A DNA stretch of 64,000 nucleotides from a virus. Shown piece by piece: positions 3,001-57,398 of the stretch. Location: positions 1 through 64,000 of IMG/VR virus record IMGVR_UViG_3300037804_000252, one strand, 5' to 3'. The translations under genes were made by a program, and so were the position numbers. Within the stretch, counting starts at the first letter, position 1. Every line of letters begins with the position of its first letter. Under the pieces are notes generated by a model. The model was not told the origin of the DNA. It was given only the letters and a program-made list of their open reading frames with translations, and did no database searches.

Positions 3001-6000
3001 ACTACCCGTTTGCCAAAATGTATAAGTTGAACCAACTAAGAATTGTAATGTAGGTTGTCTTTCTGAATTAATAACATATTTGTTACTACCATCAAAATCT
3101 TGAACATCTACATTTAGACTTTTAATATCTTCGAATGGTTCAAATGATGCAGATACTAATAAAGAACCAGTAGTTTTAACATTTCCACCAACATTTAGTC
3201 CACCACTAATAGATGCAGTAGCATTCACTTCAAATCTGAAGTCAGGTGTTAATGATGCCGTTACCGAACCTGTTGCGATTGATGCTTGTAATGGAAAATC
3301 CTCTGCATTGTCTGAAATAGGGATATCAAATAAATCTCTACCACTACCACTAAATGCTCCACTAACTTCATTTACTACAATTTTATCTCCACTAATTGTA
3401 TTTCCAAAAGAAATATTATCTTGAACATCTAAATCACCATTTAAGTCTAAATTACCTTGTATTAGTGTATTGTTATATAATTCTATTGAAGCACTTTGTA
3501 CATATTCATCTACAACATAAATTGTTCCTGCCATTTCAGCATGATTCTCACAATTATAGTAGTATGTACCTTGTGCAGATGCAGAGAAGAAAATAGAACC
3601 ACTCGTTCCACCATTATTTGTAAATGGAAGTGCGTTACCAGTTCCCGTTCCTGCTGAGGTCTTTAAGTAAAAAGGATGTCCCGATGCTGATATTTCAAAT
3701 TCGTATGCAAGATTTTTAACTAATACTAAATCTGGATTCAATCTACCATCGATTGAGTACGCAGTATTACCAACATTGTATACAAAGAAATGAGTATCTA
3801 AAGAACCCGTAGGAACTATTTGATTTGAGGCAGATACTATAAAACTACCACTTACCCTTAAATCATCTTCAAATCTACCAAATTCATTTACAATAAATCC
3901 TTCATTAGGAGAAACCGATGCTGTTACTGAACCAGATGCGATTCTTGATGCGTCTTCTGAAAGTGCAGATTGTGGAATATTAAATAATCCACTACCATCA
4001 CCTTGGAAAAGAGATGCAGAAATATAATTTTGAGTATCTATCGAACCACTAAATATAGAACGAACTGAACCTTCCGATGAAGCAACGAGAAACTCTCTAT
4101 ATTCAAATACAGAAGCACTTACCGAACCTGTTGCTATTCTTGGAGAATCATCAGATAGTGCTGCTTGTGGAATATTAAATAATCCTCGACCATCTCCACT
4201 AATTATACCATCAACATCTAGTGAATTTGTTACAAATACCGAACCTGTAAATTCTTGTCTATCTGCTAAAGTTTTTCCAAATGTGTTTGAACCTGAAGAG
4301 TAAATTATTGTAGTTTCTACATAGTTTGTATAAAGTTCATTTGATACAATTGCACCTGCTACTACTAAGTCACCATCAATTGATGCACTTGCGTTTACGG
4401 TAAATCCACTTGTTGGGTCAATTGAAGCAGAAAATGCTCCACTAATTATTCTATTTGAATCCAATGCATCTTCAGTTAGTGCATTTCTTGGAATATTGAA
4501 TAATTTTTCACCAGAACCACTAAATGCAGAACCAGATTGTACTCTAACTTCACCAAAGAAAGTAGAACCACTATCAACCGAAGTTACTACAAAACCATCA
4601 TCAGGTGATGTTGATGCAGTTACCGAACCACTAAATATTTTTGATGTATCTAAATCTGCTATGGCAGCAGCTGGTATGTTAAATAGTTTTTCACCAGAAC
4701 CACTAAATGCAGAACCAGATTGTACTCTAACTTCACCAAAGAAAGTAGAACCACTATCTATTGACTCTACAACAAAACCATCGTTTGGTGAAACTGATGC
4801 GGTTACTGAACCACTTGTTATTTCGTTTGATTCTAATGCGTCATCTGTTAATGCAGTTCTTGGTATATTGAATAATTGTTCACCACTACCACTAAAGAAC
4901 GAACCACTACTAATAGAAACTCCACCAAGTACATCAATAGAACCAGTAAATTGTGAACCACTATCTATTGACTCTACTTTGAAACCGTCTTCATTAGAAA
5001 CGGATGCAGTTACATTACCTTGTTGTATTCTCGTTGATGCTACCACTTCTTCTGCAAAAGCAGATAAAGGTATATCAAATAAATCTCTACCACTACCACT
5101 AAAGAATGATGCAGAAACTGAACCACCTGCTGTTACATCAGTACCTACTGTTGCATTTCGAGACACAAAAATAGAACCACTAAATTCAGACCTTGTTCCT
5201 AATATACCTGTTCCAAAATCTTCTACTCTAAATCCTCTATTAGGGTCTACTGATGCTGTTATAGAACCTGATGCTATAAATGATGAAATTAGTGCATCTT
5301 GTGTAAGTGCAGTTCTTGGTATATTGAATAATTTAGCACCACTACCACTAAAGTCAGAACCAGAAGTTAATCTAAGTTCTCCAGTAAATGTAGAACCACT
5401 CACTTCTGATGTTACAATGAATCCATCATTTGGGTCAACTGATGCAGTTACCGAACCAGTTGTTAATATTTTTGCTTCTGCCGCAATTGCAGCATTTATT
5501 GCTTGTTGTGTTTCATCTGAAAGTGCTGCTAGAGGAATATCGAATAACTTTTCACCACTACCACTAAATGAACTACCACTTGCAACTCTAAGTTCACCAA
5601 AGAATGTTGAACCAGTTAATGAAGTTACTACGAATCCCTCATTTGGAGAAACCGATGCAGTTACCGAACCACTTACTATAAATGAAGATAATAAAGCATC
5701 TTCAGTAAGTGCTGAACGAGGTATGTTAAATAAATCCCTACCACTACCACTAAATACCGAACCACTTTGTAGTTTAACATCTCCAATAAAAAGTGAACCA
5801 CTATCAACTGAAGTTACTACAAATCCAGTATCAGGTGAAACAGATGCGGTTACCGAACCAGATGTAATTTGATTTGTAATTAGAGCATCTTCAGTTAATG
5901 CTGAACGAGGAATATCAAAAAGTCCTTGACCACTACCACTAAATACCGATGCCGATACTCCACTTTCTACAAACAATGAAGAACTAAACTCTGCTCTATC

Positions 6001-42219: not shown

Positions 42220-42591
42220 TTATTCTTTTGGTAATTCAGTTGCTGGAATATCTTGATTCTTTAGTTGTTCCTTCATTTGTTCCAACACTGCAGGGTTATA
42301 TGTAATAGTGCCCTTTTGTAAATCTAATTGTCCTCTTGGATATTCTTTCTCAAGTGCTGCAATCATCTTTCTCATTTCTTGATTGTCAGATTTGAAGTCA
42401 TTTTCAAGTTTATCTCTGTCAGAGTGTAATAATTCCAATTCTTCACCTAACTCCTTTTCACGGATGTATAATTGACCGAAACTATTTACTGCTTGATTTA
42501 GTTTATTATTTTGGTCTACAATCGGTTTAATAACACCTTCATCTAAGGTAACTGTTACTAATTCAATTTGTTGTTTTTCTTCGTTTGCCAT
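42220..42591 (-). CDS. Small coiled-coil protein with YPxGQxDLxKG motif, 123 aa
   Basis: An acidic helical protein. Residues 25-90 are heptad-like (LYIREKELGEELELLHSDRD, then KLENDFKSDNQEMRKMIAAL). The C-terminal part has EKEYPRGQLDLQKGTITYNP. A second gene at 47173-47445 has the same layout and nearly the same motif (KKYPNGQIDLEKGIIIF), so the two are paralogues flanking the sugar cassette. No function is known. A coiled-coil chaperone or a structural fibre-attachment protein would fit. Confidence 0.75.
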   Translation of the reverse strand: MANEEKQQIELVTVTLDEGVIKPIVDQNNKLNQAVNSFGQLYIREKELGEELELLHSDRDKLENDFKSDNQEMRKMIAALEKEYPRGQLDLQKGTITYNPAVLEQMKEQLKNQDIPATELPKE

Positions 42592-42646: not shown

Positions 42647-43402
42647 TTATAAGTTTTCGTAATCTATTGTTGTAACACCTCGTTTTTGTACAACTTGTGC
42701 TGAACATCGATTTCCGAATTGTATTGATTTTGGAATATCGTTAGTATCTAAGAACTCTTTCACAAATCCTGCTACAAATGTATCACCAGCCCCTGAGATA
42801 TCCATAATCTCTACTTGTTCGGTTGGATATACTATATCATGATACATACATCCATCTTTATCTAATGTAACTATTAATTTTTCTACCAACCACCCATTGT
42901 CATTAATATATTCTATACTATTTTGAAATTCTGAACGGTTCTGTTTTATAAATCGTAAATTTTCACACCAATCCCCTAATTGTTTTTTCGTATCACAAAT
43001 TACATTTGGGTGTCTGAATGAGATAAAACTAATAACTTCTTCCGTTAAAAACCCTTTATTATAATCAGAGATTACAACCATATCATAATCAGAATAATTA
43101 ATAGAAAGAAGTTGTGCATCGGTTATTCTATCTATTCGTTCTTCCTCATCTATTCTTAGTAGTAAACTGTTTGATGCTTCATGAATGTGTCTTGTCTTTT
43201 TTATAGTAGATTCATGTGTAATAAAGTCAACTTCTAATTTTAGTGATGTAAGATTACTCAATACATTCAATCCCATTCCACCATTACTAACTGTCCTTAA
43301 AGGAATAAATACAGGAGCAGGTCCTTCTGGTGATAACCTTGGTGTATCTCCATAAATGAAGATATCATCACATTGTTCTCCTATTAATAAAACCTTATTC
43401 AT
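42647..43402 (-). CDS. Heptose-7-phosphate kinase, HldE N-terminal-domain-like (PfkB family)
   Basis: A 251-aa ribokinase/PfkB kinase. The N-terminal VLLIGEQCDDIFIYGDTPRL followed by SPEGPAPVF corresponds to the HldE kinase opening (VMVVGD..LD.Y.YG...R.SPEAPVPV). GGMGLNVLSNL matches the GGAANVA motif, LLRIDEEE the HldE sugar-lid segment, and VISDYNKGFLT then CDTKKQLGDW follow. DISGAGDTFVAGF (about residues 200-212) is the PfkB anion-hole and catalytic-base signature. In bacteria it phosphorylates D-glycero-beta-D-manno-heptose 7-phosphate at C1. It is shorter than the usual domain (about 320 aa). It overlaps the adenylyltransferase gene by eight bases, so the two halves of HldE are coded side by side. 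Confidence 0.82.
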   Translation of the reverse strand: MNKVLLIGEQCDDIFIYGDTPRLSPEGPAPVFIPLRTVSNGGMGLNVLSNLTSLKLEVDFITHESTIKKTRHIHEASNSLLLRIDEEERIDRITDAQLLSINYSDYDMVVISDYNKGFLTEEVISFISFRHPNVICDTKKQLGDWCENLRFIKQNRSEFQNSIEYINDNGWLVEKLIVTLDKDGCMYHDIVYPTEQVEIMDISGAGDTFVAGFVKEFLDTNDIPKSIQFGNRCSAQVVQKRGVTTIDYENL

Positions 43403-43784
43403 TGTTTAATATTTTTGTTGTACTAAAATTATCTATTCTATTAAAATAAACAATTGATTTTGCGTATTGTCCACCTATTATAGATTTATTTTTATAATCA
43501 GAACCAATTACAAAGACATCTGGTTCAAATGTTTTTATTAATTGTTCTAGCATTTCAGATGAATCAAATATCACAACTCGTTTAACACCCTTTATTCTTT
43601 CTAAGTTGTACTTTCTTTCCTCTTGTGAGTGAAAGGGTCTATCATCACCTTTAAGTTCTTTAACTCGTTTATCAGAGTCTATTCCTACTACCAATAGTTC
43701 ACCAAAACTAGCTGCGTGTTCTAATAATCTAAAATGAGCATGATGTAAGACATCAAAACAACCATTCACCCAAACTTTTTTCAT
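43395..43784 (-). CDS. Heptose-phosphate adenylyltransferase, HldE C-terminal-domain-like
   Basis: A 129-aa nucleotidyltransferase. VWVNGCFDVLHHAHFRLLEH has the HxGH-type site H14-H-A-H17 (Gly replaced by Ala). VVGIDSDKRVKELKGDDRPF is the phosphate-binding loop segment of HldE and glycerol-3-phosphate cytidylyltransferase relatives. VFVIGSDYKNKSIIGG precedes FSTTKIL, the position of the ISSTxxR motif. With the adjacent PfkB kinase it would make ADP-heptose from heptose 7-phosphate. The isomerase (GmhA), phosphatase (GmhB) and epimerase (HldD) are not in the window and may be supplied by the host. Four-base overlap with the heptosyltransferase gene upstream. Confidence 0.82.
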   Translation of the reverse strand: MKKVWVNGCFDVLHHAHFRLLEHAASFGELLVVGIDSDKRVKELKGDDRPFHSQEERKYNLERIKGVKRVVIFDSSEMLEQLIKTFEPDVFVIGSDYKNKSIIGGQYAKSIVYFNRIDNFSTTKILNNE

Positions 43785-44935
43785 AAGAACTTTTTTAATT
43801 CAGTAATTACCATATTAGAAGTTATTGATTTAGTACACTCAAAATGTCTTTCTGTTCCTTTATGTTCTGGACACCAATTCCAATCTCCTGCATCTAACCT
43901 ATGTTTATTAAAACACCCACCACATTTATCTTTAGGTGCACCGATTCTTATACAATCTTGCATTTCTGCCCATTTTTCTGAAAACCCACTGATTAAAACT
44001 GTCTTTGTTCCTAATGCCCAACTTAACCAACTTAATCCACTACCAATACCAATAAATGCTTTAGATTTTTCCATTTGATTCATAACCGATTGTAAACTTC
44101 CCTCTGGGTGTTTTTTGATACCATCTGGGTGGTAGTTACCCATATATCCACTCTCTTCTCGTGAAAGTAATTTTACTTTATACCCTTTATCATTTAACCA
44201 ATCTACCACATCTTGCCAACCAGTTGGATTATTCCAATATTTTGGTTGTGCAGTTCCATGAAAAGCAATCGTAATTAACTTATCATCTTTTTTAATTTTT
44301 TTATTTGAGATTTTAGGTTTTATTTCTACATAATCAAGTCCTAAAATATCAGACCCCATTTTTTGTAAAGGTTGTTCTAAAAAGTTATTTGGATTTAATA
44401 AAGGGTTTGGATTATTATTATCAGTATAATAAATTCCTAACTTGTACATAGCATATAGGTTATGTACGGTTGAACCAGGATTTACAAACTTTAGTGTTGG
44501 GTAGTGTTCTTCAAATAAATAATTATGAAAAGTTGATACAATTAATTCACAATTATGCTTTTTTCTAAAAGTTTCTATATATGGAAACCATGCTAATGTA
44601 TCACCAAGTGCTTTTGAATCAAATGCAATAAATACTTTTTTATTTTTTAGATTAATTTTGTGAGTATGAACCAAATCATCACCATGGTAAATATCAATTT
44701 TCCAATCTATAAAATATTCATAATTTGATTTAGCCCAATGACCTGCCTTTAATTTGTTTTCGTATAAAGTTTGTCCATTTTTTTGATTTACAAATTTTAC
44801 TAAATATTCGTTATCACTATTACCAACAACCTCTACATATGGACCATTTACAAAATGAATGTTAAATGTATCACCATCTACACTTGGTAGTTGTTTAATA
44901 TTATTTTTATTTATTTTTATATTATCGTAAATCAT
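43781..44935 (-). CDS. TibC/Aah-like protein O-heptosyltransferase with four-Cys finger
   Basis: A 384-aa GT-B fold glycosyltransferase. VFIAFDSKALGDTLAWFPYI corresponds to the donor-fold opening of heptosyltransferases (GT9-like) and of the autotransporter heptosyltransferase family (TibC, Aah). ITIAFHGTAQPKYWNNPTGW, then SGYMGNYHPDG and FIGIGSGLSWLSWALGTKTV, are nucleotide-sugar-site segments. The C-terminus has Cys338-x2-Cys341-x13-Cys355-x11-Cys367, like the iron-binding four-Cys finger of TibC-type enzymes, which transfer heptose from ADP-heptose to Ser of adhesin repeats. The N-terminal 90 residues are beta-rich (TFNIHFVNGPYVEVVGNSDN). It directly abuts the upstream glycosyltransferase gene. 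Acceptor protein is unknown; the neighbouring Ser-rich fibres are candidates. Confidence 0.82.
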   Translation of the reverse strand: MIYDNIKINKNNIKQLPSVDGDTFNIHFVNGPYVEVVGNSDNEYLVKFVNQKNGQTLYENKLKAGHWAKSNYEYFIDWKIDIYHGDDLVHTHKINLKNKKVFIAFDSKALGDTLAWFPYIETFRKKHNCELIVSTFHNYLFEEHYPTLKFVNPGSTVHNLYAMYKLGIYYTDNNNPNPLLNPNNFLEQPLQKMGSDILGLDYVEIKPKISNKKIKKDDKLITIAFHGTAQPKYWNNPTGWQDVVDWLNDKGYKVKLLSREESGYMGNYHPDGIKKHPEGSLQSVMNQMEKSKAFIGIGSGLSWLSWALGTKTVLISGFSEKWAEMQDCIRIGAPKDKCGGCFNKHRLDAGDWNWCPEHKGTERHFECTKSITSNMVITELKKFL

Positions 44936-47101
44936 TTATGACCATTTTTTATCGTATAAATCTAAAAGAGAAAAACCATCTGCTTGAAGTGAATATACTT
45001 TATTTGTAGTGTATCTTGGTCTTGGGTGTGTGTAAAAAACATGATTAAACCAAAGGTCACCAACATCCCACTCACAATCGTTTATTCTATCAACCCACCA
45101 ACTTTTTTCTCTATTTGGTATCAGATAACAATGAGCAAGATTTTGATTATGACCTGTCTTTGTAAATAAATCATCTATCACTTCTTTATATTGAGACCCA
45201 TTATTTGCAAAAGATAAAAAAGGAACTTTATCTCTTTCTGAAATAAAACATGCCTTGTGTACAATATTAGTAAATTCTTCAAGTCCAACACTCAAGTATC
45301 CATCTGCTTCAAATATTAATGTATAATCAAAATTTTCAGTATCTATTGTTTCTATTGCGGTTTTATGAGCAAGATAACAACCATAATGTCTACCAGTAAT
45401 CCAACCCAAACCAGCACCTGGATAAAGTTCACCTGGTTTATTATCTTTACTGAGATGGTCTGGTCTTCTACAAAATTCTTTTGGTGCGAATCCATCATAG
45501 ACTTCATTTATAATTGGTTCGTAAACCATACCATATCTTTCTAATTGTTTTAATGAGTTATGTGATATAGTTTCTCGTAAGTCATCAGGTCTTGTTAATA
45601 AGTGTTTAACTTGAATTCTTGGTTTTCTTCTCATATAAGAATGACCATCAATTGCAACTTGATTATAAAAAAACGTTTCAACTGATTTATTGACCTCATT
45701 AAATACATTAAAATCATCACCTGCTATAATTCCACCTGGTTTTATTTTATGATACCATATATTCAGATTTTCTTCTGTTGATTGATAATCAGAATCTATC
45801 ATCATAAAATCAATAGAGTTATTTTCAAATAATTTTACTGAACTTTCTGAGGTGTCTTTTATAACATTAAATGAATCTTTGTTGTTTGAAATTAATGTGT
45901 TATCTATAAAATCACAATAAATGTCTCCATCAAAATCATTTACAATACTTTGTTTAGAGTTTTCTTTATATTCAGAAAAAGTATCAATAGTAGTAAAATT
46001 AATATTTTTTTTAGATTTTTTAATTAACTCTGCCATTTTGTTTGATGACTTACCCATCCAAGAACCAAGTTCAACAAATGTAGAATTGTCATTAAACTCA
46101 TTGACCATTCTTTTGTACACCTTTTCATATGAAAACCAACCAGGAATTTCATTAAACTCTGGTTTAAGTATTTCTATAATTGTCTTTTTTGTTTTTAATA
46201 AATCATCATCAATGTAAGTAACCAATGGATTATTATCGTAAGTATCTAAATAAGTCTCTAACTTTCTAAATATTGATTTTAATGAATACTCCAACGCTTC
46301 TTTAACTGATAGTGGGTTTAGTTCTAATGTTGAACTAAAATAAAATAAATCGGCTGCTTCGTAAAAACTACTAACATCATCTCGTTCTCCCCAAACAATA
46401 CAATTATTTGGTTTATTATCCATTAGGGGTTTCCAATAATGTTCAAAGTTTCCTGCTTGGTTACCAATGAAATGAAATTTTATTTTATACTTTTCTAACT
46501 GTCTTGCTATTCTAAAAATTTCACTTTGGTTTTTACCAGGTGTAAATAAACCAACCATGATTACATGCTTCCAATCATGCTCAAGATTTAATTCTTTTTT
46601 TGCTTTAGATTGATTTTTTTTCTTTTTTATAATTGGATATTCCCAAACATCGGTGTCTATATTCAAATGTTCAAATTGTCTTCTACTCCACTCAGACACT
46701 AAAACATATTTGTCTGCATGAAATCTTATTTCATTTGGATTTGTTTTTGAACCATGTGTGGTTACAACTATTTTATAATCTCTTTTTTTATTATTAAATA
46801 TTTTTTCTAAAGAGTTATGTGGAAGATAATGTTCTGGTATTTCTTGAAAATGAATAATGTCTGGAGTTTGACTTTCTATAATAGATTCTATTTCAGATTT
46901 GTCATCACCCAACGTATGTAATTTAACCAAACTATTTATTTGATTTTTTTGAACTACAAACGTATTTCCCGAATGATTGTTGACTTCTACTACTTGTATA
47001 TGAAAATCATCTACAAAGTTTTCTATTTGTCTTAAAAGATATTGTGGCATCCCTCCCGTAGATAAATGGGGGGCAATATATAGTAACTTTTTTTTATCCA
47101 T
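44936..47101 (-). CDS. Three-domain sugar enzyme: GT-B glycosyltransferase, SAM methyltransferase, GT25-like
   Basis: A 721-aa fusion. Residues 1-290 are a GT4-like GT-B transferase: LLYIAPHLSTGGMPQYLLRQ at the start, DIIHFQEIP, VIMVGLFTPGKNQSEIF, and ADLFYFSSTLELNPLSVKEA near the donor site. Residues about 310-475 are a class I SAM methyltransferase: TFVELGSWMGKSSNKM (motif I), IDFMMIDSDYQSTEEN and KPGGIIAGDDFN. Residues about 490-721 resemble GT25-type or related transferases, with GLGWITGRHYGCYLAHKTAI followed by FDYTLIFEADGYLS, whose EAD can serve as a metal-binding site. It has a strong Bacteroidetes-type promoter in front and heads the cassette with the heptosyltransferase and HldE halves. 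It probably extends or methylates a glycan on fibres or the host surface. Confidence 0.82.
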   Translation of the reverse strand: MDKKKLLYIAPHLSTGGMPQYLLRQIENFVDDFHIQVVEVNNHSGNTFVVQKNQINSLVKLHTLGDDKSEIESIIESQTPDIIHFQEIPEHYLPHNSLEKIFNNKKRDYKIVVTTHGSKTNPNEIRFHADKYVLVSEWSRRQFEHLNIDTDVWEYPIIKKKKNQSKAKKELNLEHDWKHVIMVGLFTPGKNQSEIFRIARQLEKYKIKFHFIGNQAGNFEHYWKPLMDNKPNNCIVWGERDDVSSFYEAADLFYFSSTLELNPLSVKEALEYSLKSIFRKLETYLDTYDNNPLVTYIDDDLLKTKKTIIEILKPEFNEIPGWFSYEKVYKRMVNEFNDNSTFVELGSWMGKSSNKMAELIKKSKKNINFTTIDTFSEYKENSKQSIVNDFDGDIYCDFIDNTLISNNKDSFNVIKDTSESSVKLFENNSIDFMMIDSDYQSTEENLNIWYHKIKPGGIIAGDDFNVFNEVNKSVETFFYNQVAIDGHSYMRRKPRIQVKHLLTRPDDLRETISHNSLKQLERYGMVYEPIINEVYDGFAPKEFCRRPDHLSKDNKPGELYPGAGLGWITGRHYGCYLAHKTAIETIDTENFDYTLIFEADGYLSVGLEEFTNIVHKACFISERDKVPFLSFANNGSQYKEVIDDLFTKTGHNQNLAHCYLIPNREKSWWVDRINDCEWDVGDLWFNHVFYTHPRPRYTTNKVYSLQADGFSLLDLYDKKWS

Positions 47102-47172: not shown

Positions 47173-47445
47173 TTAGAAAATAATAATTCCTTTTTCTAAA
47201 TCAATTTGTCCATTAGGATATTTTTTATCAATCTCACCTAATTCAAGATTCATTTCGTTGATTGACTTATCTAATCTTAATCCAAATTCATCTTCCTTTG
47301 AATCCAACTCATCAAGACTTTTTTCAAATTGTCTTCTCTGAACTGCTAATTGACCTAGTGCAATTACAAGATTGTTTTGTTCATCTTGAATTCCTTTTAG
47401 TTTTTCAACTAATGATTGTTCTAATTGTTCTGTTTTTTGTTCCAT
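47173..47445 (-). CDS. Small coiled-coil protein, paralogue of the 123-aa gene
   Basis: A 90-aa helical, acidic protein. Residues 1-70 are heptad-like (QLEQSLVEKLKGIQDEQNNL, then RRQFEKSLDELDSKEDEF). The C-terminal motif KKYPNGQIDLEKGIIIF matches EKEYPRGQLDLQKGTITYNP of the gene at 42220-42591. It lies between the fibre chaperone and the sugar cassette. No known function. Confidence 0.75.
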   Translation of the reverse strand: MEQKTEQLEQSLVEKLKGIQDEQNNLVIALGQLAVQRRQFEKSLDELDSKEDEFGLRLDKSINEMNLELGEIDKKYPNGQIDLEKGIIIF

Positions 47446-47502: not shown

Positions 47503-47895
47503 TTATTCTGGTTTTGTTGGGAGTGTATATGGTGGAGTTTGTGAAGTTATATCTCTCAAGTCTTGTCTATATTGAACCCACTCATCTAATTTAGAACCAG
47601 TAATAGGAGAATGAGGAAGTACTACCCAATCACTATCATTCAATAATGAGTTTCGTGTATTTCTAATACCAAGTAATTGTTCAGCGTTTATTTCATCGGT
47701 AGTAAATGGTACTTCGGTGTGAACACCATCAATTACTCTGTATCTAATATTACTTCTAGCTTCTATCCATTCCTCTTTAGTTAGTTCTATATTTGGAGTT
47801 GGTATAGAATCATAGTCAGTCCATATATCAGTTGGATGATAACTTTTGTAATCACCACTACCAGTATCATAATGTGCGAAATATTGTATTGCCAT
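47503..47895 (-). CDS. Tail-fibre assembly chaperone-like protein, 130 aa
   Basis: The C-terminal half, NTRNSLLNDSDWVVLPHSPI then KLDEWVQYRQDLRDITSQTP, matches the R..LL..tDW......P......W..YRq.LRdi pattern of phage fibre-assembly/tail-chaperone families (also seen in XkdW-like proteins). The N-terminus is an aromatic-rich beta segment. It starts 14 bases after the stop of the 3162-aa fibre gene, the usual place for a fibre chaperone. The motif supports the call; the exact family is uncertain. Confidence 0.75.
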   Translation of the reverse strand: MAIQYFAHYDTGSGDYKSYHPTDIWTDYDSIPTPNIELTKEEWIEARSNIRYRVIDGVHTEVPFTTDEINAEQLLGIRNTRNSLLNDSDWVVLPHSPITGSKLDEWVQYRQDLRDITSQTPPYTLPTKPE

Positions 47896-47909: not shown

Positions 47910-50900
47910 TTAATGTCCTATTGCTATCCAAAACCCAGATGTTCCATCTAATATGATATCCATTCCATTCCTATCCACATTAGATACATGATTAAATCCA
48001 CTTCCACCTGCTGAGTTTCTTAGAGTAGAACAAACAGCTGCACTTATTGAGGTTGGGAATTCAGTTGGAAATCCAACATTCTTTATACCATAAGAAGTAC
48101 CTTGATTAACACTTCCCCATTGTATTATTACACCACCAGGAAGTTTTACATAACTATCTTTATTATTAACGACTGTTGTTTGACCCGTGGTTCCTGTTAT
48201 AGAATTGACAAGTGAAACTGCCAGTCCACTAATATCTATACCATTTAGATATTTCCATCTATTTCCATCTTTACCTAATGCAAATGGTCTATAAACTCCA
48301 CCAGTTGCACTTATACTATTAGTACTAGCTACATCAGGGTTCATTGGTAATATGTTACCCATTGCAAATATTGCTTGTGCATTAGTATCATCGTAGGCTG
48401 AAGCTGCTGGGTCAACAGCAAATGCTCTTGATGTAATTTCTAAATGACCATCACCTACTTCTAATAATTTTGTGGCAGTATCAATCAATTCTCTTCTAAA
48501 AATTCTTACAAATCTATCGTTATTAGATACAACTTGTATTCCTGCTGGTCTTATTTCTACAAAGTTATTTTCTGCTTGAACTGTAATATCCTGGTCCCAA
48601 CCTCCATAACTATAACCACCATTACTAAAAAACTCTTCAGTATAATTTGATGTAGAGGTATTTGTTTTGAATGTTGTAGTATGAACGTTCCAAGGTCCAG
48701 CCGTAAACCCACCACCTGATGTAACAGAAAAACTCTGTCCAGAAGCAGATGCAACTTCCCATCTATATCTAAGTCTAGCAGGTCCACTTTCTTGAATAGA
48801 GATACTTTTTTCAACCGTTTCTGAAGATGAAGATTTATTACCTCCACCTGAAGATGCTCCGTCAATTATTTGATATACCCATTCTAAAGTATCCCCACCG
48901 ATGATGTTGTGAGAAATAATACCATTTGAAAGATAGTTTACATAGTGAGGTACACTAAAGGTTATTACCTCTTCTTCTTTTTCAATTATTTCAACTTTGC
49001 TTATTTTAACTGCTTTTATAGAGTCACCATCTTTAATACGAACATGGTAACCATCTTCTTCTAGTAAATCAGTATGATTTTTATAAACATCATATAAATT
49101 AGTTACTTTTACCTTTCCACTGTTTAATTGTGTACCAAATAACCAAAAACAGTGATTTTTGGAAACTTCAATCTCTTTTCCATCAGTAGTTGTTACTTTA
49201 TAGACTTTAGATACATCTCTTTTATGAATTTTAGATAATTTAGCAGATACCCATTTTTTATTTATATCATCCCATGCTAAAATCGTATCATTGATGGTAA
49301 TATATTTTGCTAACTTCGTAGTACCATCCGATAAAGTTATCTTAGTATCACCCACTACCGAAAGCTGACCACCACCACCAAATGTTTCCTCTGCCTGATA
49401 ATTGGAATATGAATTTGTTGGACCGTAAGTGTAAAGAGTTTTTAGTAATGTCTCTCCAATTACCACATCATCATTATTAATAACTTCTAGATAAACCGAA
49501 CCTCTTCGTTGTTGAGGAGATGGGTATGCTTGTATCCCCCCATGTATCTCACCTGAAAAGACCGGGTCATTGGAAGGTTGAGCAATTGTTGGATTTTGCG
49601 GTGATGTCATTCCAGTTTGTTTTAACTGAAGATATGGTATGGTAATATCCTTAAATGTTTTTACACCCGCTGAGATTGTTATAGGAGTGTTTGATGGTAT
49701 TGAAGTTCCTGTTGTTTTCGCAAAAGTTTTACCATTACTAGTAGAGGTTGCGGATATATTACTTCGAAGACCTCCAACAGAGGTTGCTGCGGAACCAGAC
49801 CATGTAAAACTTGTGTTTAGTGCTGCTGTTGATGAGAAATCCGAAACCGAATCTATTCGTATTTGTTCTCTACTTGATACCGGAATCAACTCTGATGGGT
49901 TCGAACCTGCTTCATATAATTGAACAGGTGCCCCATAACCAGTTGCATTTTCATTATAATAATAGAAATTGGTTGACGGTCTAGATGCTCCTAATACTGG
50001 TGAATTACCAAAAAGGTCAAAACTTTCAGATGGAAATATCGTAAGATATGCACCCGCATTACCTGGTAATGCACTTGAGGTTTGGATTAAGAATGGTTGG
50101 TTTTCAATGTTACTTGTATCTAAAGTTGTTGGTCTATTATACCTACCACCATATGTACCAATACCATCTTCTCTAACTGAGAAACTAAATAACTGATTTA
50201 ACATTGATGGGTGAGATAAATCAAAGTAATAACTACCACCATTATCTGTTGCAGGGGCCTGTTGCTCCAGTCGGGTTTGGGTTGGAGTAAATGGTAAAAA
50301 CTCTGACATGATTAAGTTAAGAGAAGCTTTGGATTCAGTGACATCAGAACTAAGACCTATGGCGAACGCATTATTCTCAACAAATACAGACATACTTCTA
50401 GGTGCACTTGTATCCACTTCTTCATATGACTGACTAAATATTTTTATACTAGGTGGTATCCCTATGTCAGCATCACCTGGATTTAATATAATTTCATTAC
50501 CATCATCTCTAAGTGTATTTGTTGTCTCATCAATAATCCATTCACCAATTTTACCAGAACTTGCTTGAACCGTACCTGCTATATTTGCGTCTGATGCCGA
50601 AACAATTCCAAGTATATCAACAGTAAATCTATATTCATTTGTATTTGGTCCAGTTTCTCCTATGAATAGTGATGGTCCTATAATTGCAGAACCAGTACCA
50701 GTAAATGATGCATCTGATAATGTAATTGCTCCATCTTTATATCTTAAAAATCTAGAACCAGTAGACATTGACAAAACAGGTAAACTTCCCGTGTATCCTA
50801 AGTATATTCCATCTTCTCCAAAATCTTGAACTACCTGCCCAATAGATATAAATGGATTTTCGTTATTGTTACTTGCGTCAGCATTTAATGCAATTGTTGG

Positions 50901-53900
50901 AGTTCCTGTATTATCTGCACCAATGTTAATTGTTTGGTCTACATAAACTTCTTGAGCTAGAAGAATATCAGTTGCAACTGAACTAAACTGAGCTCCAAAT
51001 GATGTCCAATCACTACCACCAACTGGATTATCCCAAGTATCTAATCCATTTTTATTTGAATTATCAACTATATAGTAATTACCATCACTACCCTCTACAA
51101 CATCAGTTCTCTCAGTAGATTGAAAGTAAAGTTTAGTTGAATCATAAACTCCTCTGAATACTACTCCTGCTCCAGGTGCTCCAGGTGCACCAGTTGCTCC
51201 AGAGGAACCAGCAGTTCCAGCAGTTCCCGAAGTACCATCGACACCAGCATTTGCTCGTGTAAATGATTGTTTCTTAACAAGTCTAACAATATCACCATTT
51301 GCTTTTTTATGTTTTAGTACATGATTGATAAATCCATTGGCTGTACTAAAGTTTGTTAAATTTCCTATTGTACCCGTTGTAGTACCACCTCCACCAATTG
51401 TTGGAAATTGTCCACCTGTAAATCCTTTATATAATGATGCTTCAATTGTGAATTCAGAATTATTCAATGCTGAAGGATTACTTGTACGAATTTGATAATC
51501 ACTATCACCATCAAATGCACAAAAATCAAATAAGATACCAGATGCACCTTGTCCACTAATTTCGTATTCATCTGAAAGTACTACTTCCCAATTTGTACCA
51601 CTTGTATTATTGATAGCTTTAACTTTTGCGTAATCGAATCCACTTTGTACATCAACTCCCTCGGATTGAAAACCACCATCAACATTCACATCATGTACCC
51701 AAAGAATTCCTAACTCCGCAAGAATTTGCATCAGTTGAAGCATCGATGCTTGTCCTGAACTTATATCACTTTCACTAAATGTAATTACCGCATCTCCTTG
51801 ACCTTCGTTTCCAGGACCCTGTATTTCAAAATTAACATTAATATCAATATTTTGGTCTGGGTTTTTGAAAGTTAATGGAGTTGTTCCTTCATATGCATTT
51901 ATTTCAGTTCCACTATCTGAAAAGTTGGTTATAGTTCCAGTAGAATTTGCTTGGAATGTGTGAGATTCATTTGATAATACGGATGTGATTGCATTAGAAC
52001 CATCTGTGAGTCTAACAACAGTTATTTCATCAGATTTACCACCAGCAGTAGCAGTAACAGTAACTGCGGTGTTTGTACCAAAATCTCCTTTTCTCAAATA
52101 AACAGTATCACCAGTTGTGGTTGAACTACCACCAGTTGATGCATCATAAAGAGTTACCGATGGTGAAGTTGTCCAAGATGTTGCAGTTCCTATATTTTCT
52201 TTATTAGCAGTAAACTCAATAAAATCAGGAGTTAGTACACCATTTGTTCCTTCTACAAAAGATTGACCATCTGTGGTTAATCTTAATGTTTTTGCTGCCA
52301 AATTGGATTCTTGCCAATATGTTGTGTATGAAGAACCTACACCAGGTTCATCGTTACCAACACCCTTATCATGAACTAAGATACATTCCCAAGTTATACC
52401 ATTATTAGATGTTGTATCTCCTACTATAAAAGAAAACCCACTTACGAGAGTACTCCATGCTGCAAGAATTCTGCTTTCTACCTCACCTTCAGGTGTTTGT
52501 CTAAGTGCACCTCTGATAGTTAGTGTTTCACCATTCCATTCTAACGATTTATACTTTCCACTAACGGTGTTACTTTTCATTGACATCTTTGGAAGGATAC
52601 TTGTTCCCGCATCCCCTGCCGAATTGGACATACCCATCCAAATTCCTTGTTCTTGGAATCCGATAGTACCCGTTTGTCCTACTGCAATATAAGGTTCATC
52701 AGTACCACCTGCAATTGTAATTTGTGGATTGACTGCGTATGAAGTTGGTGGTGTACCAACATTAAGTGTATTTTTTACAAATGACTCTTCAAATATTGCT
52801 AACTTTGCTGCTACGAAGAATTCTTCTTGACCAAGTGATACCCAATAATCAGTATTTACTTCTCTACCACCACTACCATCATCTCTTGTTGGTGCTTGAG
52901 CGTCTCCTGCACCAGGTGATGAATCATTAGGAGTTATAAAAGAAGAACCACTGTCTTTTGTTGCGTAATAGGTATCATATGGTTCATTACCACTTTCAGA
53001 ATAAAGTACAGAATCTCTTCGTTTAGATTCTTTGTTATAGATATATTCTATTGAACCAGTCCAAGGCCCTCTAAACACAAGACCAGGACCCACATCACCC
53101 TCTTTTGTTGATGCTATTGATTGTGATAAGAAATAAGTTGCTCTACCATTTTCAATATCAACTTTGTAAATTACAGTTGCAGTTGGATTGTCTTGTGGTA
53201 AAGTCCAATCAGTTAATGGTCCTACTGACGCAGGGTTTCCTTGTGGGAAACTTGGTTGAGTAATGTATGTATCTAAGTTAAATATAGATGAAGAAAACTC
53301 ACCAAGTGTACCAATAGGGTCACCTACATTATCAAGTTGTTGACTAGAGTAGTTCTGAACATTAGTTAGTTCTTGAGTACCCTTAAATGCTTTTATCTGA
53401 GTACCAGTTGTACTTAAATCAAGTTCTCCATCAACCTTAACTGTAATTGTTGGTGATGGGTTAGTTAAAAATACCTGATAATTATTTGCTCCACTTTGTA
53501 CACCCGATATAGTTACTTCCTTACTTGCGAATACTGGTCCACTTATTGAACCATCTCGTAAATCAACTCTATACGTTGTAGTTGTACCAGGTGCAGGTAA
53601 ATCACCAGACCCAACTTCAAACTGATTGTTTGTACCAGGAAAAGTAACTGCGAATCCTTCTTGAAAGAATTCATAATATGCTTGAGATGATGTTATATTA
53701 AATGGTGTTGCTGTAAGAAATATAGATGTTGGTTCTAAAGATGATGCGTCTACTGGTGATGTTATAATACCATCCTTATCATAATTTGCTACCTCGGTTG
53801 TGGTTGATAGTTCAACACTTCTTGCTCGTATACCTTCTTTATTTTTTGAAAATAGTTGTTTTCTATTTACGGTTTGAGACCCACTTAATATTCCACTTGT

Positions 53901-56900
53901 AATTGAGAATGGATATATTTTAATTTGGTAATCAACACTACCACTATCAGTTAAAAAGTTATTAAAGTCTCTAAAATGTAGTGTATCATCTAAATTTCTT
54001 TCAGTTGAATTATCATTTGAAGATGAGAATGTACCAATTGATATTTGGTTTGGAGAAAGAGACGCACTAAATGTACCAGGTAAAACTAAAGAAGATGTAC
54101 TAAACTCCATGTAAGTATCACCCTGTTTAACTCTCAATGTTGTATTTGCAGAACTAAAGTCAACTATTCCTCCGTTTTCTTCTGCATCTATTGTTACTGA
54201 CACTGGGTCTAATTCTATATTGATTGCATCTGCACCTTCTAGTGTTTTCTTAAACTGTTGAACAAAACTTTGTGTATAAAATGAACCCGTAAAGTATGGA
54301 TGGATTTCCAAATCATATGTAACACTTGCTGTTAGGTCTGTCATTCTTCGGAAACCACTTAAAGACATTGTTGCGTCTCCAAGAATTTCATCAAAAGTTG
54401 TATACTCAATCCCTAAAGGAGTTATTGATGATGTAGTAAATGTACCAGGTTTTTTTGTATCATCAAATATAAGTGGTAATCTACCTTGTGTTACAGTAAT
54501 TGTTGTATCTGCATTTGAATAGTTAAATACATTTCCTCGTTGGTCTGCATTAAGAACTACTGGTCTTGGGTCTATATCAACTATAATAGAATCTACACCA
54601 GGTAATCCATCAGGTACAGAAAAAAATGTTTTATCTACTGAAATCGATGCTGATGTGATATCCTCAGTATATGTAAATGTTGTAGTTAATTGTTTTCGTT
54701 CTATTGGTACGAAATATGAAACTTCCTCACCAGGTCTACCACTATCTACAATGTTGTTGTCTTTATCAGTTACTACAATATCGATTCTTCTATCAAACGA
54801 ATCAGTAACGTAGAACATATAATAAAATGGTTCTTTTGTCTCAGGGTCAACCGACATTGATGGGTAGATATCTAAAGTACCACTAATTGGACTTGAGTTA
54901 GTTCCTCTTAAATAGAAAGAACCAGTAACTCTACCAATCTCTGGAGTGAAAACTCTTTCATCTCTCGGTTTTATTCCAAATTGTTCTGCATCAAAACTAA
55001 TAAATCCACTTGCAAGACCATCTTGTAAATCATTTAGAATAATAGAAGTTAATATAGATTCAGAAGTAGGTCCATCCATTAAATAAACCGTAAGTTCTTT
55101 ATCTATTGAATCTCTGTTAAAAGTTGCGTTATAATCTATTTCACCACTACCAGTTGTACCCGCAGTTAAACCTCTTATAAATCCACTTGTCTGTACTTCA
55201 GATAATAAAAAATATGATGATGATACATCAGATGTGATTGGGTCAATTGATGAGGATAATACCCTAAGTTTGGCATCTGAAAATCCTGTCTGAGGTAATC
55301 CATCCTTTAACTCAATTCTATTTATACCATCAATACGATATGCTTGTATTTCTAAATCTTTATCAGAATTATTTTTTATCGATGTTCCTCTAAATGGTGT
55401 TATTTCAAAATTTACACCACCCTTTCCATCTTGAACCCGTGTAATAACAACTTCATCTGATATACCTTCTGCGAATCCAGTAAATCTAATATATTGAACT
55501 ACGATATCACTTCTTGAACCAGTAAAATCTGCAACATTAAGAACAGGTGTTCTTGTATCTATATTTCTTAATAATCCAGGATATTGTCCTCCTGCGTATT
55601 CTGACGCAGATAGGAAGTTCCCAAACTCATCGTATGCACCAGATGTAAATGATATGGAACCTGTCAATAAACTTGTTTCAATATCAAATATTATTGATGT
55701 TGGTGGCATTGGATTTGCTGGAAGCGATGCCGAATCAAATGTAAAATATAAATTAGATGGAGTTATTTCAAGTTCTTTATCAAATAAGTTTAAGTTACCA
55801 CCATCAAACCTTTTTGTTGCTTCTACTAAAACAGGAATGTAGTTGTTATTGATATCATAAAATTCAAACCTATAATCAAATGTTTCAACTGCTAATGTCT
55901 TTGGAACATTTTGAATAAATGTTATGACATCAGGTGAAAATGATGTTTCTTGAGATGCTTTCAGACTTAAATTGTTTATATACCAATTAGAGCCATTTAC
56001 ATCAAAGTATAGTTGTGCAGAATCAAATTCATCTGCTATAAAATTTTCATTAAAGTTTGTTTTTTGAAAAAGTCCATTAGAAGAAGGTATCTCGATTATC
56101 GTTTGAGACTTTGCTACATTATTTAGAGAACCACTCAAAAACACAGTTAGTTTTTCTCCTGCTACTAAACTTCCAGAAAGTCTTGTATTAAAGTCAAGTG
56201 AGTATTCAATATCATTTTCAATATCTAAACTTTTTGTTGTAAAAAATAAATTATCACCTGTTGAGTTTAACCTTGCTGAATTATATAAAAAGTTTTGGTT
56301 AAGGGAAACACTTAAATCATTAGATGATGTTACCCAATACTCTTCTATTATAGGTTCAGTAAAAAACCCGTAAAGTTCTTCTGGTGCTGAAAAGGTTTCA
56401 ATGTCTCGTAGTAACTCATTTGATTCTAATTGTATTTCTTGTACAAATTCGAAATCGGTTACATTGGATTGAGACCTTCTAAATATTTTTACTCTCGCAG
56501 CATCTCCTACGAAAGTTTTCATATCAGTTATTTTTATTTTTGCGAAAGAACCAGTTAATGCAGTTGCTAAGTCATTAATACCCTCTAAATATGGGAACGT
56601 TACTGAATAGTTTTCATTGGTAAGTGATTTTACCAAACCATTTTCGGAATATGGTGGAGTTACTATTAACTCAGTTTCATTTACAACTTCTTCAACTATT
56701 GGATTATAGTTTATATTATCAAAATTTATAGGGTCTCCTTCAATAGAGCCTGTCCAATTATTTCCTGTTTTAATTTTTAATCTATATGAAGTTGGTAAAC
56801 TAAAATTAGATAAATTTGTATTTTCAATCGGAACTAATGGAATACCATCAACAGTACCAGTTTGAGTAACTAATCTTGAATTATTGCTAAAAATTGGTTT

Positions 56901-57398
56901 GTTTATCTCATCAATAGTAACTTCGGGTCTTCTATAAAACCTAACTCTATCTTCATTCGATATATTTTTATTTACTTGAAAAGTTCTTTCCCACTTAACA
57001 TTATAAACACCCTCCCATTGGTCTGGTACAACTCTTTTAACTCCCTCATCATCATACTCCTTTAGTTCACCTAAAACAGTAATCTTACCCAATCCAATTG
57101 GAGTATCATTATAAATGTAAACAGCTATTAGTTTAGATATACCTTCGTAGTATTCCGGAATACCATTACCTGGTTCAAAGTAGATTGGGTCTCCATTAAC
57201 ATCTAAAAGTTCAATCTTTATTTCGGTTGATTCTTTTAGATATTCTGAACCCTCTATAAGAAATCCATTCTTACCACCAGTAAACGTATCCTTAAATTCG
57301 GTTATTCTAAAGTAATCTGAATTTGGATTTTCATCATTTATAAATGTTTGAAATGATGATAAATTTTGAAGTGGTGAATATTTTTTAATTCTTGCCAT
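47910..57398 (-). CDS. Giant 3162-aa tail fibre/receptor-binding protein with Hint domain
   Basis: A single frame of 3162 codons. The N-terminal ~350 residues (MARIKKYSPLQNLSSFQTFI) form a probable virion-attachment region. Residues about 360-500 look like a carbohydrate-binding jelly-roll. Then come many Ig-like units of about 100 residues with TVxxKxGxxGxxxI character. Two modules of the FRGVYDSTKLYFQSTERTDV type may bind sugar. Residues about 2052-2076 are collagen-like (GTSGTAGTAGSSGATGAPGA). A Hint domain spans 2680-2831. The C-terminal ~100 residues (GGVIIQWGSVNQGTSYGIKN to FWIAIGH) match the gp53-like fibre tip domain common in phage receptor-binding proteins. Its start shares a divergent intergenic region with the ribbon-helix-helix gene. 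A chaperone gene follows. Fibre assignment is strong; receptor unknown. Confidence 0.9.
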   Translation of the reverse strand: MARIKKYSPLQNLSSFQTFINDENPNSDYFRITEFKDTFTGGKNGFLIEGSEYLKESTEIKIELLDVNGDPIYFEPGNGIPEYYEGISKLIAVYIYNDTPIGLGKITVLGELKEYDDEGVKRVVPDQWEGVYNVKWERTFQVNKNISNEDRVRFYRRPEVTIDEINKPIFSNNSRLVTQTGTVDGIPLVPIENTNLSNFSLPTSYRLKIKTGNNWTGSIEGDPINFDNINYNPIVEEVVNETELIVTPPYSENGLVKSLTNENYSVTFPYLEGINDLATALTGSFAKIKITDMKTFVGDAARVKIFRRSQSNVTDFEFVQEIQLESNELLRDIETFSAPEELYGFFTEPIIEEYWVTSSNDLSVSLNQNFLYNSARLNSTGDNLFFTTKSLDIENDIEYSLDFNTRLSGSLVAGEKLTVFLSGSLNNVAKSQTIIEIPSSNGLFQKTNFNENFIADEFDSAQLYFDVNGSNWYINNLSLKASQETSFSPDVITFIQNVPKTLAVETFDYRFEFYDINNNYIPVLVEATKRFDGGNLNLFDKELEITPSNLYFTFDSASLPANPMPPTSIIFDIETSLLTGSISFTSGAYDEFGNFLSASEYAGGQYPGLLRNIDTRTPVLNVADFTGSRSDIVVQYIRFTGFAEGISDEVVITRVQDGKGGVNFEITPFRGTSIKNNSDKDLEIQAYRIDGINRIELKDGLPQTGFSDAKLRVLSSSIDPITSDVSSSYFLLSEVQTSGFIRGLTAGTTGSGEIDYNATFNRDSIDKELTVYLMDGPTSESILTSIILNDLQDGLASGFISFDAEQFGIKPRDERVFTPEIGRVTGSFYLRGTNSSPISGTLDIYPSMSVDPETKEPFYYMFYVTDSFDRRIDIVVTDKDNNIVDSGRPGEEVSYFVPIERKQLTTTFTYTEDITSASISVDKTFFSVPDGLPGVDSIIVDIDPRPVVLNADQRGNVFNYSNADTTITVTQGRLPLIFDDTKKPGTFTTSSITPLGIEYTTFDEILGDATMSLSGFRRMTDLTASVTYDLEIHPYFTGSFYTQSFVQQFKKTLEGADAINIELDPVSVTIDAEENGGIVDFSSANTTLRVKQGDTYMEFSTSSLVLPGTFSASLSPNQISIGTFSSSNDNSTERNLDDTLHFRDFNNFLTDSGSVDYQIKIYPFSITSGILSGSQTVNRKQLFSKNKEGIRARSVELSTTTEVANYDKDGIITSPVDASSLEPTSIFLTATPFNITSSQAYYEFFQEGFAVTFPGTNNQFEVGSGDLPAPGTTTTYRVDLRDGSISGPVFASKEVTISGVQSGANNYQVFLTNPSPTITVKVDGELDLSTTGTQIKAFKGTQELTNVQNYSSQQLDNVGDPIGTLGEFSSSIFNLDTYITQPSFPQGNPASVGPLTDWTLPQDNPTATVIYKVDIENGRATYFLSQSIASTKEGDVGPGLVFRGPWTGSIEYIYNKESKRRDSVLYSESGNEPYDTYYATKDSGSSFITPNDSSPGAGDAQAPTRDDGSGGREVNTDYWVSLGQEEFFVAAKLAIFEESFVKNTLNVGTPPTSYAVNPQITIAGGTDEPYIAVGQTGTIGFQEQGIWMGMSNSAGDAGTSILPKMSMKSNTVSGKYKSLEWNGETLTIRGALRQTPEGEVESRILAAWSTLVSGFSFIVGDTTSNNGITWECILVHDKGVGNDEPGVGSSYTTYWQESNLAAKTLRLTTDGQSFVEGTNGVLTPDFIEFTANKENIGTATSWTTSPSVTLYDASTGGSSTTTGDTVYLRKGDFGTNTAVTVTATAGGKSDEITVVRLTDGSNAITSVLSNESHTFQANSTGTITNFSDSGTEINAYEGTTPLTFKNPDQNIDINVNFEIQGPGNEGQGDAVITFSESDISSGQASMLQLMQILAELGILWVHDVNVDGGFQSEGVDVQSGFDYAKVKAINNTSGTNWEVVLSDEYEISGQGASGILFDFCAFDGDSDYQIRTSNPSALNNSEFTIEASLYKGFTGGQFPTIGGGGTTTGTIGNLTNFSTANGFINHVLKHKKANGDIVRLVKKQSFTRANAGVDGTSGTAGTAGSSGATGAPGAPGAGVVFRGVYDSTKLYFQSTERTDVVEGSDGNYYIVDNSNKNGLDTWDNPVGGSDWTSFGAQFSSVATDILLAQEVYVDQTINIGADNTGTPTIALNADASNNNENPFISIGQVVQDFGEDGIYLGYTGSLPVLSMSTGSRFLRYKDGAITLSDASFTGTGSAIIGPSLFIGETGPNTNEYRFTVDILGIVSASDANIAGTVQASSGKIGEWIIDETTNTLRDDGNEIILNPGDADIGIPPSIKIFSQSYEEVDTSAPRSMSVFVENNAFAIGLSSDVTESKASLNLIMSEFLPFTPTQTRLEQQAPATDNGGSYYFDLSHPSMLNQLFSFSVREDGIGTYGGRYNRPTTLDTSNIENQPFLIQTSSALPGNAGAYLTIFPSESFDLFGNSPVLGASRPSTNFYYYNENATGYGAPVQLYEAGSNPSELIPVSSREQIRIDSVSDFSSTAALNTSFTWSGSAATSVGGLRSNISATSTSNGKTFAKTTGTSIPSNTPITISAGVKTFKDITIPYLQLKQTGMTSPQNPTIAQPSNDPVFSGEIHGGIQAYPSPQQRRGSVYLEVINNDDVVIGETLLKTLYTYGPTNSYSNYQAEETFGGGGQLSVVGDTKITLSDGTTKLAKYITINDTILAWDDINKKWVSAKLSKIHKRDVSKVYKVTTTDGKEIEVSKNHCFWLFGTQLNSGKVKVTNLYDVYKNHTDLLEEDGYHVRIKDGDSIKAVKISKVEIIEKEEEVITFSVPHYVNYLSNGIISHNIIGGDTLEWVYQIIDGASSGGGNKSSSSETVEKSISIQESGPARLRYRWEVASASGQSFSVTSGGGFTAGPWNVHTTTFKTNTSTSNYTEEFFSNGGYSYGGWDQDITVQAENNFVEIRPAGIQVVSNNDRFVRIFRRELIDTATKLLEVGDGHLEITSRAFAVDPAASAYDDTNAQAIFAMGNILPMNPDVASTNSISATGGVYRPFALGKDGNRWKYLNGIDISGLAVSLVNSITGTTGQTTVVNNKDSYVKLPGGVIIQWGSVNQGTSYGIKNVGFPTEFPTSISAAVCSTLRNSAGGSGFNHVSNVDRNGMDIILDGTSGFWIAIGH
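48906..49361 (-). other. Hint / bacterial intein-like domain inside fibre
   Basis: Residues 2680-2831 (152 aa) of the 3162-aa protein. The first residue is Ser in SVVGDTKITLSDG (codon 49359-49361). Block B is EVSKNHCFWL. The C-terminal blocks are ITFSVPHYVNYLSNGIISHN, ending in His-Asn (Asn codon 48906-48908). The next residue is Ile, not Cys, Ser or Thr. Hence Asn cyclisation and C-terminal cleavage are possible, but classical splicing is not expected. No homing endonuclease domain is present. Confidence 0.85.

What the first reader, a model, noticed from the sequence alone, without database searches (positions are those of the whole stretch)
42647..47101. Phage ADP-heptose and protein-heptosylation cassette beside a giant fibre gene
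Four coupled genes encode an HldE-kinase-like enzyme, an HldE-adenylyltransferase-like enzyme, a TibC/Aah-like heptosyltransferase with its four-Cys finger, and a GT-B/methyltransferase/GT25-like fusion. In bacteria TibC-type enzymes attach heptose from ADP-heptose to Ser of repetitive adhesins. The phage carries enormous Ser/Thr-rich adhesins next to and around the cassette. The simplest idea is a self-contained system that heptosylates phage fibres, hiding them, stabilising them or changing host range. An alternative is modification of the host surface to block superinfection. The motifs are seen; the system and target are inference.
Basis: partly seen in the sequence, partly recalled or inferred. 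Interest (0 to 1): 0.88.

Follow-up and report, generated by a model that had tools for sequence, protein, structure and literature searches.

The report
Phage enzymes for sugar-coating tail fibres
A T4-like phage carries a small gene set that very probably sticks a heptose-type sugar on serines of its own giant, partly collagen-like tail fibres; the same enzyme family turns up in hundreds of uncultured phage genomes, where it tends to travel with serine-rich collagen-like fibres, and we found no paper describing it in phages.

Summary
Four coupled minus-strand genes lie exactly at 42647-47101. 43781-44935 is a real TibC/Aah-type protein O-heptosyltransferase: NCBIfam TIGR04414 273 bits (cut-off 200), AlphaFold model pLDDT 92, Foldseek to TibC TM 0.84 (WaaC 0.48), catalytic Asp, donor Thr/Lys/Trp and four iron-finger Cys kept. 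42647-43402 and 43395-43784 are divergent HldE kinase and adenylyltransferase halves. 44936-47101 is GT4 + optional methyltransferase + GT25-like domain. The cassette sits at one fixed place between a giant fibre gene and the terminase in dozens of related contigs. At least 598 IMG/VR contigs encode a relative, several fused to a GT4 enzyme.

A better target emerged: Ser/Thr-saturated collagen-like (Gly-Thr-Ser/Gly-Ser-Ser) fibres. The record's left-end tail fibre contains them. Contigs with (GTS)3 carry the enzyme in 16 of 50 cases, against 0 of 50 with (GPA)3; TibC-positive contigs carry the repeat in 13 of 21, against 0 of 10 TibC-negative T4-like relatives. Target and donor remain inferred: Arg286 of TibC (adenine contact) is Val here.

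The parts
44936..47101 (-). 721-aa three-domain protein: GT4/GT-B glycosyltransferase (about aa 1-320), Methyltransf_24 domain (about 343-464, missing in some relatives), GT25-like C-terminal domain (about 480-721; EADG/EADA motif)
   Evidence: Pfam, Foldseek GT4 matches such as BshA E 8e-12, PF01755 in 10 of 12 homologues, alignment A1
43781..44935 (-). 384-aa TibC/Aah-type protein O-heptosyltransferase with N-terminal beta-barrel, GT-B core, D112 (=TibC D110), T228, K232, W303 and iron-finger C338/C341/C355/C367
   Evidence: TIGR04414 273 bits, PDB 4rb4 E 4e-49, AF2 pLDDT 91.6, Foldseek TM 0.84, residue conservation
43395..43784 (-). 129-aa HldE-C/RfaE-II-like nucleotidyltransferase
   Evidence: TIGR02199 108.6 bits, best family; phrog_7878; FDVLHHAH signature motif
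42647..43402 (-). 251-aa shortened HldE-N/RfaE-I-like PfkB kinase (DISGAGD catalytic motif)
   Evidence: TIGR02198 116.7 bits, best family; phrog_8133; the same short form in cyanophages
47910..57398 (-). 3162-aa giant fibre next to the cassette, conserved at this place in relatives; gp53-like fibre C-terminus; 9 Gly-X-Y triplets at about 51165-51245; intein-like domain inside
47503..47895 (-). 130-aa tail fibre assembly chaperone-like protein
   Evidence: PF16778 42.9 bits, phrog_8716 and others
1..6939 (-). left-end giant tail fibre (2313 aa seen, runs off the record); candidate acceptor substrate
   Evidence: phrog_677 baseplate wedge tail fibre connector E 2e-20, phrog_1806 collagen-like minor tail
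7..204 (-). 22-triplet Ser/Thr-saturated collagen-like run GTSGTAGTT...GSSGSSGSS in the left-end fibre, where the record breaks off; a relative's homologue has 365 Gly-X-Y triplets
42220..42591 (-). small coiled-coil-like protein (cc1) flanking the cassette, conserved in relatives
47173..47445 (-). small coiled-coil-like protein (cc2), similar to cc1, flanking the cassette on the other side

Best explanation
The cassette is a phage-encoded O-glycosylation system for the phage's own virion fibres. The TibC-like enzyme puts a heptose (or a closely related ADP-activated sugar) on Ser residues of giant fibre proteins in the cytoplasm before assembly. The most likely acceptors are Ser-rich collagen-like G-[ST]-[ST] stretches, which in relatives offer hundreds of Ser per fibre. 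The GT4 and GT25-like domains then extend the sugar and the methyltransferase caps it. The two HldE-like proteins raise or complete the supply of the nucleotide-activated heptose from a host precursor. Shown here: family and fold of the enzymes, conserved catalytic and iron-finger residues, gene coupling, linkage to fibres and to collagen-like repeats. Inferred: the sugar, the Ser acceptor, the order of steps, and the benefit (stiffening or protease protection of long triple-helical fibres, or changed adsorption).
For: TIGR04414 273 bits over a cut-off of 200; TibC structures as top sequence and fold hits, TM 0.84 against 0.48 for WaaC; D110, T226, K230, W305 and four Cys equivalents kept. Cassette fixed between giant fibre and terminase: GT-fusion plus TibC together in all 18 first-found contigs. 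At least 598 IMG/VR contigs encode a relative. GT4 is fused to TibC in several branches, including the isolate Mel-JY01 and huge phage LR756501. Collagen-like G-[ST]-[ST] fibres neighbour the TibC fusions, one with a Peptidase_S74 fibre chaperone. Reverse test: (GTS)3 contigs 16/50 with TIGR04414 against 0/50 (GPA)3 contigs, p 7e-6; at 60 kb or more 12/15 against 0/9. TibC-positive contigs with (G[ST][ST])3 13/21 against 0/10 TibC-negative T4-like relatives of 34 kb or more, p 0.001. This phage's own left-end fibre has the repeat; a relative's homologue has 365 triplets.
Against: No biochemical or mass-spectrometric evidence. TIGR04415 target repeats absent. TibC R286, which contacts adenine and is needed for activity, is Val in the window and in 54 of 68 viral rows; P300, which sets stereoselectivity, is Gly. 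No GmhA/GmhB, and Flavobacteriaceae, a possible host family, mostly lack convincing HldE-C and GmhA. The HldE halves score below curated cut-offs. The repeat-bearing fibre lies about 36 kb from the cassette here.
Confidence: 0.62

Rival explanations
1. The cassette glycosylates the phage's fibres or another virion protein, but not specifically at collagen-like repeats: the acceptor is a strand-loop-strand or beta-helical part of the adjacent 3162-aa or the 4585-aa fibre, as in autotransporters.
For: The cassette is beside the 3162-aa fibre homologue in relatives; the fibre is large; 8 of 21 TibC-positive contigs lack the (G[ST][ST])3 DNA pattern, though the pattern misses AGY serines and the contigs are fragments.
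Against: TIGR04415 absent from the record; strong enrichment of collagen-like repeats with the enzyme across unrelated phages.
Confidence: 0.2
2. The enzymes modify the host surface during infection (a host adhesin, S-layer, glycolipid or LPS), blocking superinfection or changing host behaviour.
For: Known for other phage glycosyltransferases (general knowledge); cyanophages carry HldE halves and GmhA in sugar clusters that could serve a surface polysaccharide.
Against: TibC fold rather than WaaC; the cassette sits inside the structural region beside fibre and terminase genes; association with collagen-like phage fibres.
Confidence: 0.12
3. The TibC-like enzyme uses a different nucleotide sugar: the kinase and nucleotidyltransferase act on another sugar phosphate, so this is protein O-glycosylation but not heptosylation. 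(This concerns the donor and can be true together with the fibre target.)
For: R286 to V and P300 to G in most viral copies; no GmhA/GmhB; a cupin sugar-isomerase-like gene next to the HldE halves in L104/L125; HldE halves missing in 13 of 36 relatives.
Against: Best-fitting families are the two HldE domains, next to a heptosyltransferase-family enzyme; donor residues T226, K230 and W305 kept.
Confidence: 0.3

Closest known systems
TibC / Aah, bacterial autotransporter heptosyltransferases (BAHT; TIGR04414; PDB 4rap, 4rb4)
   Same: Full-length domain layout, fold (TM 0.84), catalytic Asp, donor Thr/Lys/Trp, four-Cys iron finger, family score above cut-off
   Different: Phage-encoded, R286 to V, P300 to G, no autotransporter or TIGR04415 target, linked or fused to GT4/MT/GT25-like enzymes and to phage fibres
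HldE (RfaE) kinase and adenylyltransferase; cyanophage HldE halves (P-SSM2, S-SM2, P-TIM68, S-CAM3)
   Same: Separate kinase and nucleotidyltransferase genes of the same short form, near tail fibre genes in some cyanophages
   Different: Cyanophages also carry phosphoheptose isomerase and gave no TibC-like match; here no isomerase and TibC next door
Mimivirus L230, GT25-like collagen glucosyltransferase with lysyl hydroxylase (PMC9614988)
   Same: A virus glycosylating collagen-like proteins; a GT25-related domain is also present here
   Different: Sugar on hydroxylysine by a different enzyme; here proposed on Ser by a GT-B TibC-type enzyme in a tailed phage
BclA-type glycosylated collagen-like proteins of bacteria (general knowledge; title cited in the reference list of PMC9614988)
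   Same: Gly-X-Y stretches carrying O-glycans
   Different: Spore surface protein with other sugars and unrelated enzymes
Phage virion glycosylation, for example suggested for mycobacteriophage capsids (PMC11256854 abstract)
   Same: Phage-encoded glycosyltransferases thought to act on virion proteins
   Different: Other target (capsid); no TibC-type enzyme reported there

Membership tests
BAHT / TibC-Aah (TIGR04414) | Score above the curated cut-off of the equivalog model | tested here: met
   273.3 bits against 200
BAHT / TibC-Aah (TIGR04414) | TibC fold with N-terminal beta-barrel and GT-B core, closer to TibC than to LPS heptosyltransferases | tested here: met
   Foldseek TM 0.79-0.86 to TibC chains, 0.39-0.50 to GT9 enzymes such as WaaC
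BAHT / TibC-Aah (TIGR04414) | Catalytic Asp110 and four-Cys iron finger (C339, C342, C358, C370) | tested here: met
   D112 and C338/C341/C355/C367; invariant in 88 rows
BAHT / TibC-Aah (TIGR04414) | ADP-heptose-binding residues T226, K230, R286, W305 | tested here: inconclusive
   T, K and W kept; R286 is V284 in the window and V in 54 of 68 viral rows
BAHT / TibC-Aah (TIGR04414) | Autotransporter partner with strand-loop-strand repeats (TIGR04415) | tested here: not met
   No match at E 10 in the whole record, nor at E 0.001 in 17 genomes carrying relatives; so it is filed as a TibC-type enzyme, not as an autotransporter modifier
BAHT / TibC-Aah (TIGR04414) | Heptose transfer to Ser of a protein; dodecamer | not testable with these tools
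   Needs protein; the two hydrophobic thumb-tip residues have counterparts Y264/M265
HldE / RfaE halves | Curated equivalog score | tested here: not met
   116.7 of 345 and 108.6 of 181.5 bits, yet the best family for each
HldE / RfaE halves | Complete ADP-heptose pathway with GmhA and GmhB | tested here: not met
   Absent from the record and GmhA from 18 related records; the records are fragments
GT25 (PF01755) | Pfam cut-off | tested here: inconclusive
   10 of 12 homologues match at E up to 1, best 5e-5; window copy 17.3 bits of 24
WaaC/WaaF-type LPS heptosyltransferase (GT9) | Curated score and fold | tested here: not met
   TIGR02193 27.1 of 185 bits; TM 0.39-0.49

The most novel reading that the evidence does not exclude
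A large, undescribed family of phage TibC-type enzymes, often fused to a second glycosyltransferase, heptosylates Ser of Ser-saturated collagen-like triple-helical tail fibres: glycosylated collagen in tailed phages, made by an enzyme class unrelated to animal or mimivirus collagen glycosyltransferases.
Probability: 0.47. Interest if true: 0.88.

Novelty: new variant of a known kind. Interest (0 to 1): 0.78.

Why it matters
TibC/Aah enzymes are known as modifiers of bacterial adhesins. Finding at least 598 viral contigs with a relative, in fixed gene neighbourhoods with extending glycosyltransferases and linked to Ser-saturated collagen-like fibres, would make protein O-heptosylation a phage trait. 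It would also give a reason for the puzzling (GTSGSS)n fibres of aquatic phages. It bears on how phages stiffen, protect or retune fibres, and it is directly testable because a cultured phage (Mel-JY01) has both parts.

Tried and rejected
LPS heptosyltransferase: rejected on family score and fold. Canonical autotransporter repeats as target: searched in the two large fibres and the whole record, none. Self-contained ADP-heptose synthesis: GmhA and GmhB not found. Host inferred only loosely: the terminase is nearest to Mel-JY01 and Flavobacterium phage immuto, 58-59%; Flavobacteriaceae mostly lack convincing HldE-C and GmhA, so the host and precursor source stay open. The first control for the repeat test, (GPA)3 contigs, is probably GC- and host-biased, so a second one from T4-like terminase relatives was made. 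The AlphaFold model of the 721-aa fusion is only moderate (pLDDT 73) and its fold search was dominated by GT4, so the GT25-like end rests on weak Pfam scores. A PDB profile search of that end gave nothing useful. Literature searches found no phage O-heptosyltransferase (open-licence library only).
Full report
1. Observation. The window is bases 1-64000 of an 88,699-base IMG/VR virus record. Major head protein (25248-26843), portal (33516-35276) and terminase (35763-37346) make it a T4-like phage. The nearest terminases in sequenced phages are Microcystis phage Mel-JY01 and Flavobacterium phage immuto, 58-59%.

2. The TibC-like enzyme. 43781-44935 scores 273 bits against NCBIfam TIGR04414 (cut-off 200), while LPS heptosyltransferase models score about 27 bits. 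The only PDB sequence matches are TibC. An AlphaFold model (pLDDT 91.6) matches TibC crystal chains with TM about 0.84; WaaC follows at about 0.48. The residues shown to matter in TibC (eLife 2014, PMC4358343) are largely kept: D110, T226, K230, W305 and all four iron-finger Cys. Two are not: R286 (hydrogen bond to adenine) is Val, and P300 (stereoselectivity) is Gly, in most viral copies. So the chemistry 'sugar to protein' is well supported by membership, but the exact donor is not.

3. The partners. The 251-aa and 129-aa proteins are best matched by the two HldE domains, below curated cut-offs; they keep the DxxGAGD and HxxH-type signature motifs. The same short forms occur in cyanophages, there with a phosphoheptose isomerase and in some cases between tail fibre genes. 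The 721-aa protein is GT4 + methyltransferase + GT25-like. Relatives can lack the methyltransferase (L007, L008) or one or both HldE halves, but in the 36 dereplicated loci with both ends of the cassette the kinase never occurs without the adenylyltransferase (20 have both, 3 the adenylyltransferase alone, 13 neither). GT-fusion and TibC were together in all 18 contigs found first with either gene.

4. Wider family. On a tree of 88 dereplicated rows the window lies in a 41-row all-viral clade, with chromosomal Methylococcaceae copies nested among viral branches. In several other branches the TibC domain is fused to a GT4 domain: Mel-JY01, LR756501, L088, L093, L100, L104, L105, L109, L122, L125 and others. 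Such fusion in several branches is good evidence that a GT4 enzyme and the TibC-like enzyme act on the same product.

5. Target. The canonical target repeat TIGR04415 is absent. In unrelated phages the neighbours of the TibC fusions are large proteins made of collagen-like (GTSGSSG)n, up to 50% Ser+Thr, two of them matching Pfam Collagen at E about 1e-110; one ends in a Peptidase_S74 fibre chaperone. The left end of this record is a tail fibre whose last visible residues are a 22-triplet G-[ST]-[ST] run; the record breaks inside the run. A relative's homologue (L449, 1450 bits) has at least 3652 aa and 365 Gly-X-Y triplets. Reverse test: of 50 viral records holding a (GTS)3 pattern 16 have TIGR04414, against 0 of 50 holding (GPA)3 (p 7e-6); among records of 60 kb or more, 12 of 15 against 0 of 9. 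Closer control: of 29 records with a T4-like terminase related to immuto, one has TibC and it also has the repeat; none of the 10 TibC-negative records of 34 kb or more has the repeat, against 13 of 21 TibC-positive records (p 0.001). Two TibC-negative fragments of 20-23 kb do have the repeat. These p-values treat records as independent, which they are not entirely.

6. Mechanism. Most likely the TibC-like enzyme O-glycosylates Ser in collagen-like fibre stretches in the cytoplasm, GT4 and GT25-like enzymes extend and the methyltransferase caps, and HldE-like proteins help make the donor from host precursors. No GmhA or GmhB was found, so it is not shown to be self-contained. Flavobacteriaceae, a plausible but unproven host family, mostly lack convincing HldE-C and GmhA, which leaves the precursor source open. 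The use of glycans (stiffness, protease resistance, adsorption) is inference. Mimivirus L230 shows that a virus can encode an enzyme that glycosylates its collagen-like proteins, by another enzyme type (PMC9614988).

7. Novelty. No phage O-heptosyltransferase paper turned up in the open library. The enzyme belongs to a known family by score, fold and catalytic residues; the phage setting, the fusions and the probable collagen-like acceptor are new. Rated a new variant of a known kind.

Noticed in passing
window 47910-57398 (aa 2681-2832 of the fibre): An intein/Hint-like domain (TIGR01445 26.6 bits, cut-off 24.5) sits inside the giant fibre; the first residue looks like Ser or Val rather than Cys, and His-Asn is followed by Ile, so it may cleave or be inactive rather than splice.
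   Followed up: no
window 42220-42591 and 47173-47445: Two small coiled-coil-like proteins with similar C-termini (YPxGQxDLxKG) flank the cassette on both sides, also in relatives; a possible duplication marking the insertion site.
   Followed up: partly
L013 (PP395634.1) 2-3052, + strand: Mel-JY01 has an unannotated 1016-aa ORF, 40% Ser+Thr with about 199 Gly-X-Y triplets, overlapped by two opposite-strand hypothetical CDS; probably a collagen-like fibre at the record start, just upstream of its GT4-TibC fusion.
   Followed up: partly
L017, L019 (P-SSM2, S-CAM3): Cyanophage HldE half or halves, phosphoheptose isomerase, cysteine dioxygenase-like and epimerase genes lie between tail fibre genes, without a TibC-like gene.
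   Followed up: partly
window 57649-58470: 273-aa protein matching phrog_9148 (UDP-glucose dehydrogenase), near the giant fibre; another possible sugar gene.
   Followed up: no
L104 11130-11516, L125 11127-11513: A cupin gene with weak sugar-isomerase similarity lies between a GT4-TibC fusion and the HldE halves, perhaps replacing a missing pathway step.
   Followed up: partly
L027, L028, L030, L033: Methylococcaceae genomes carry relatives nested among the phage branches, without TIGR04415 targets; role unknown.
   Followed up: partly
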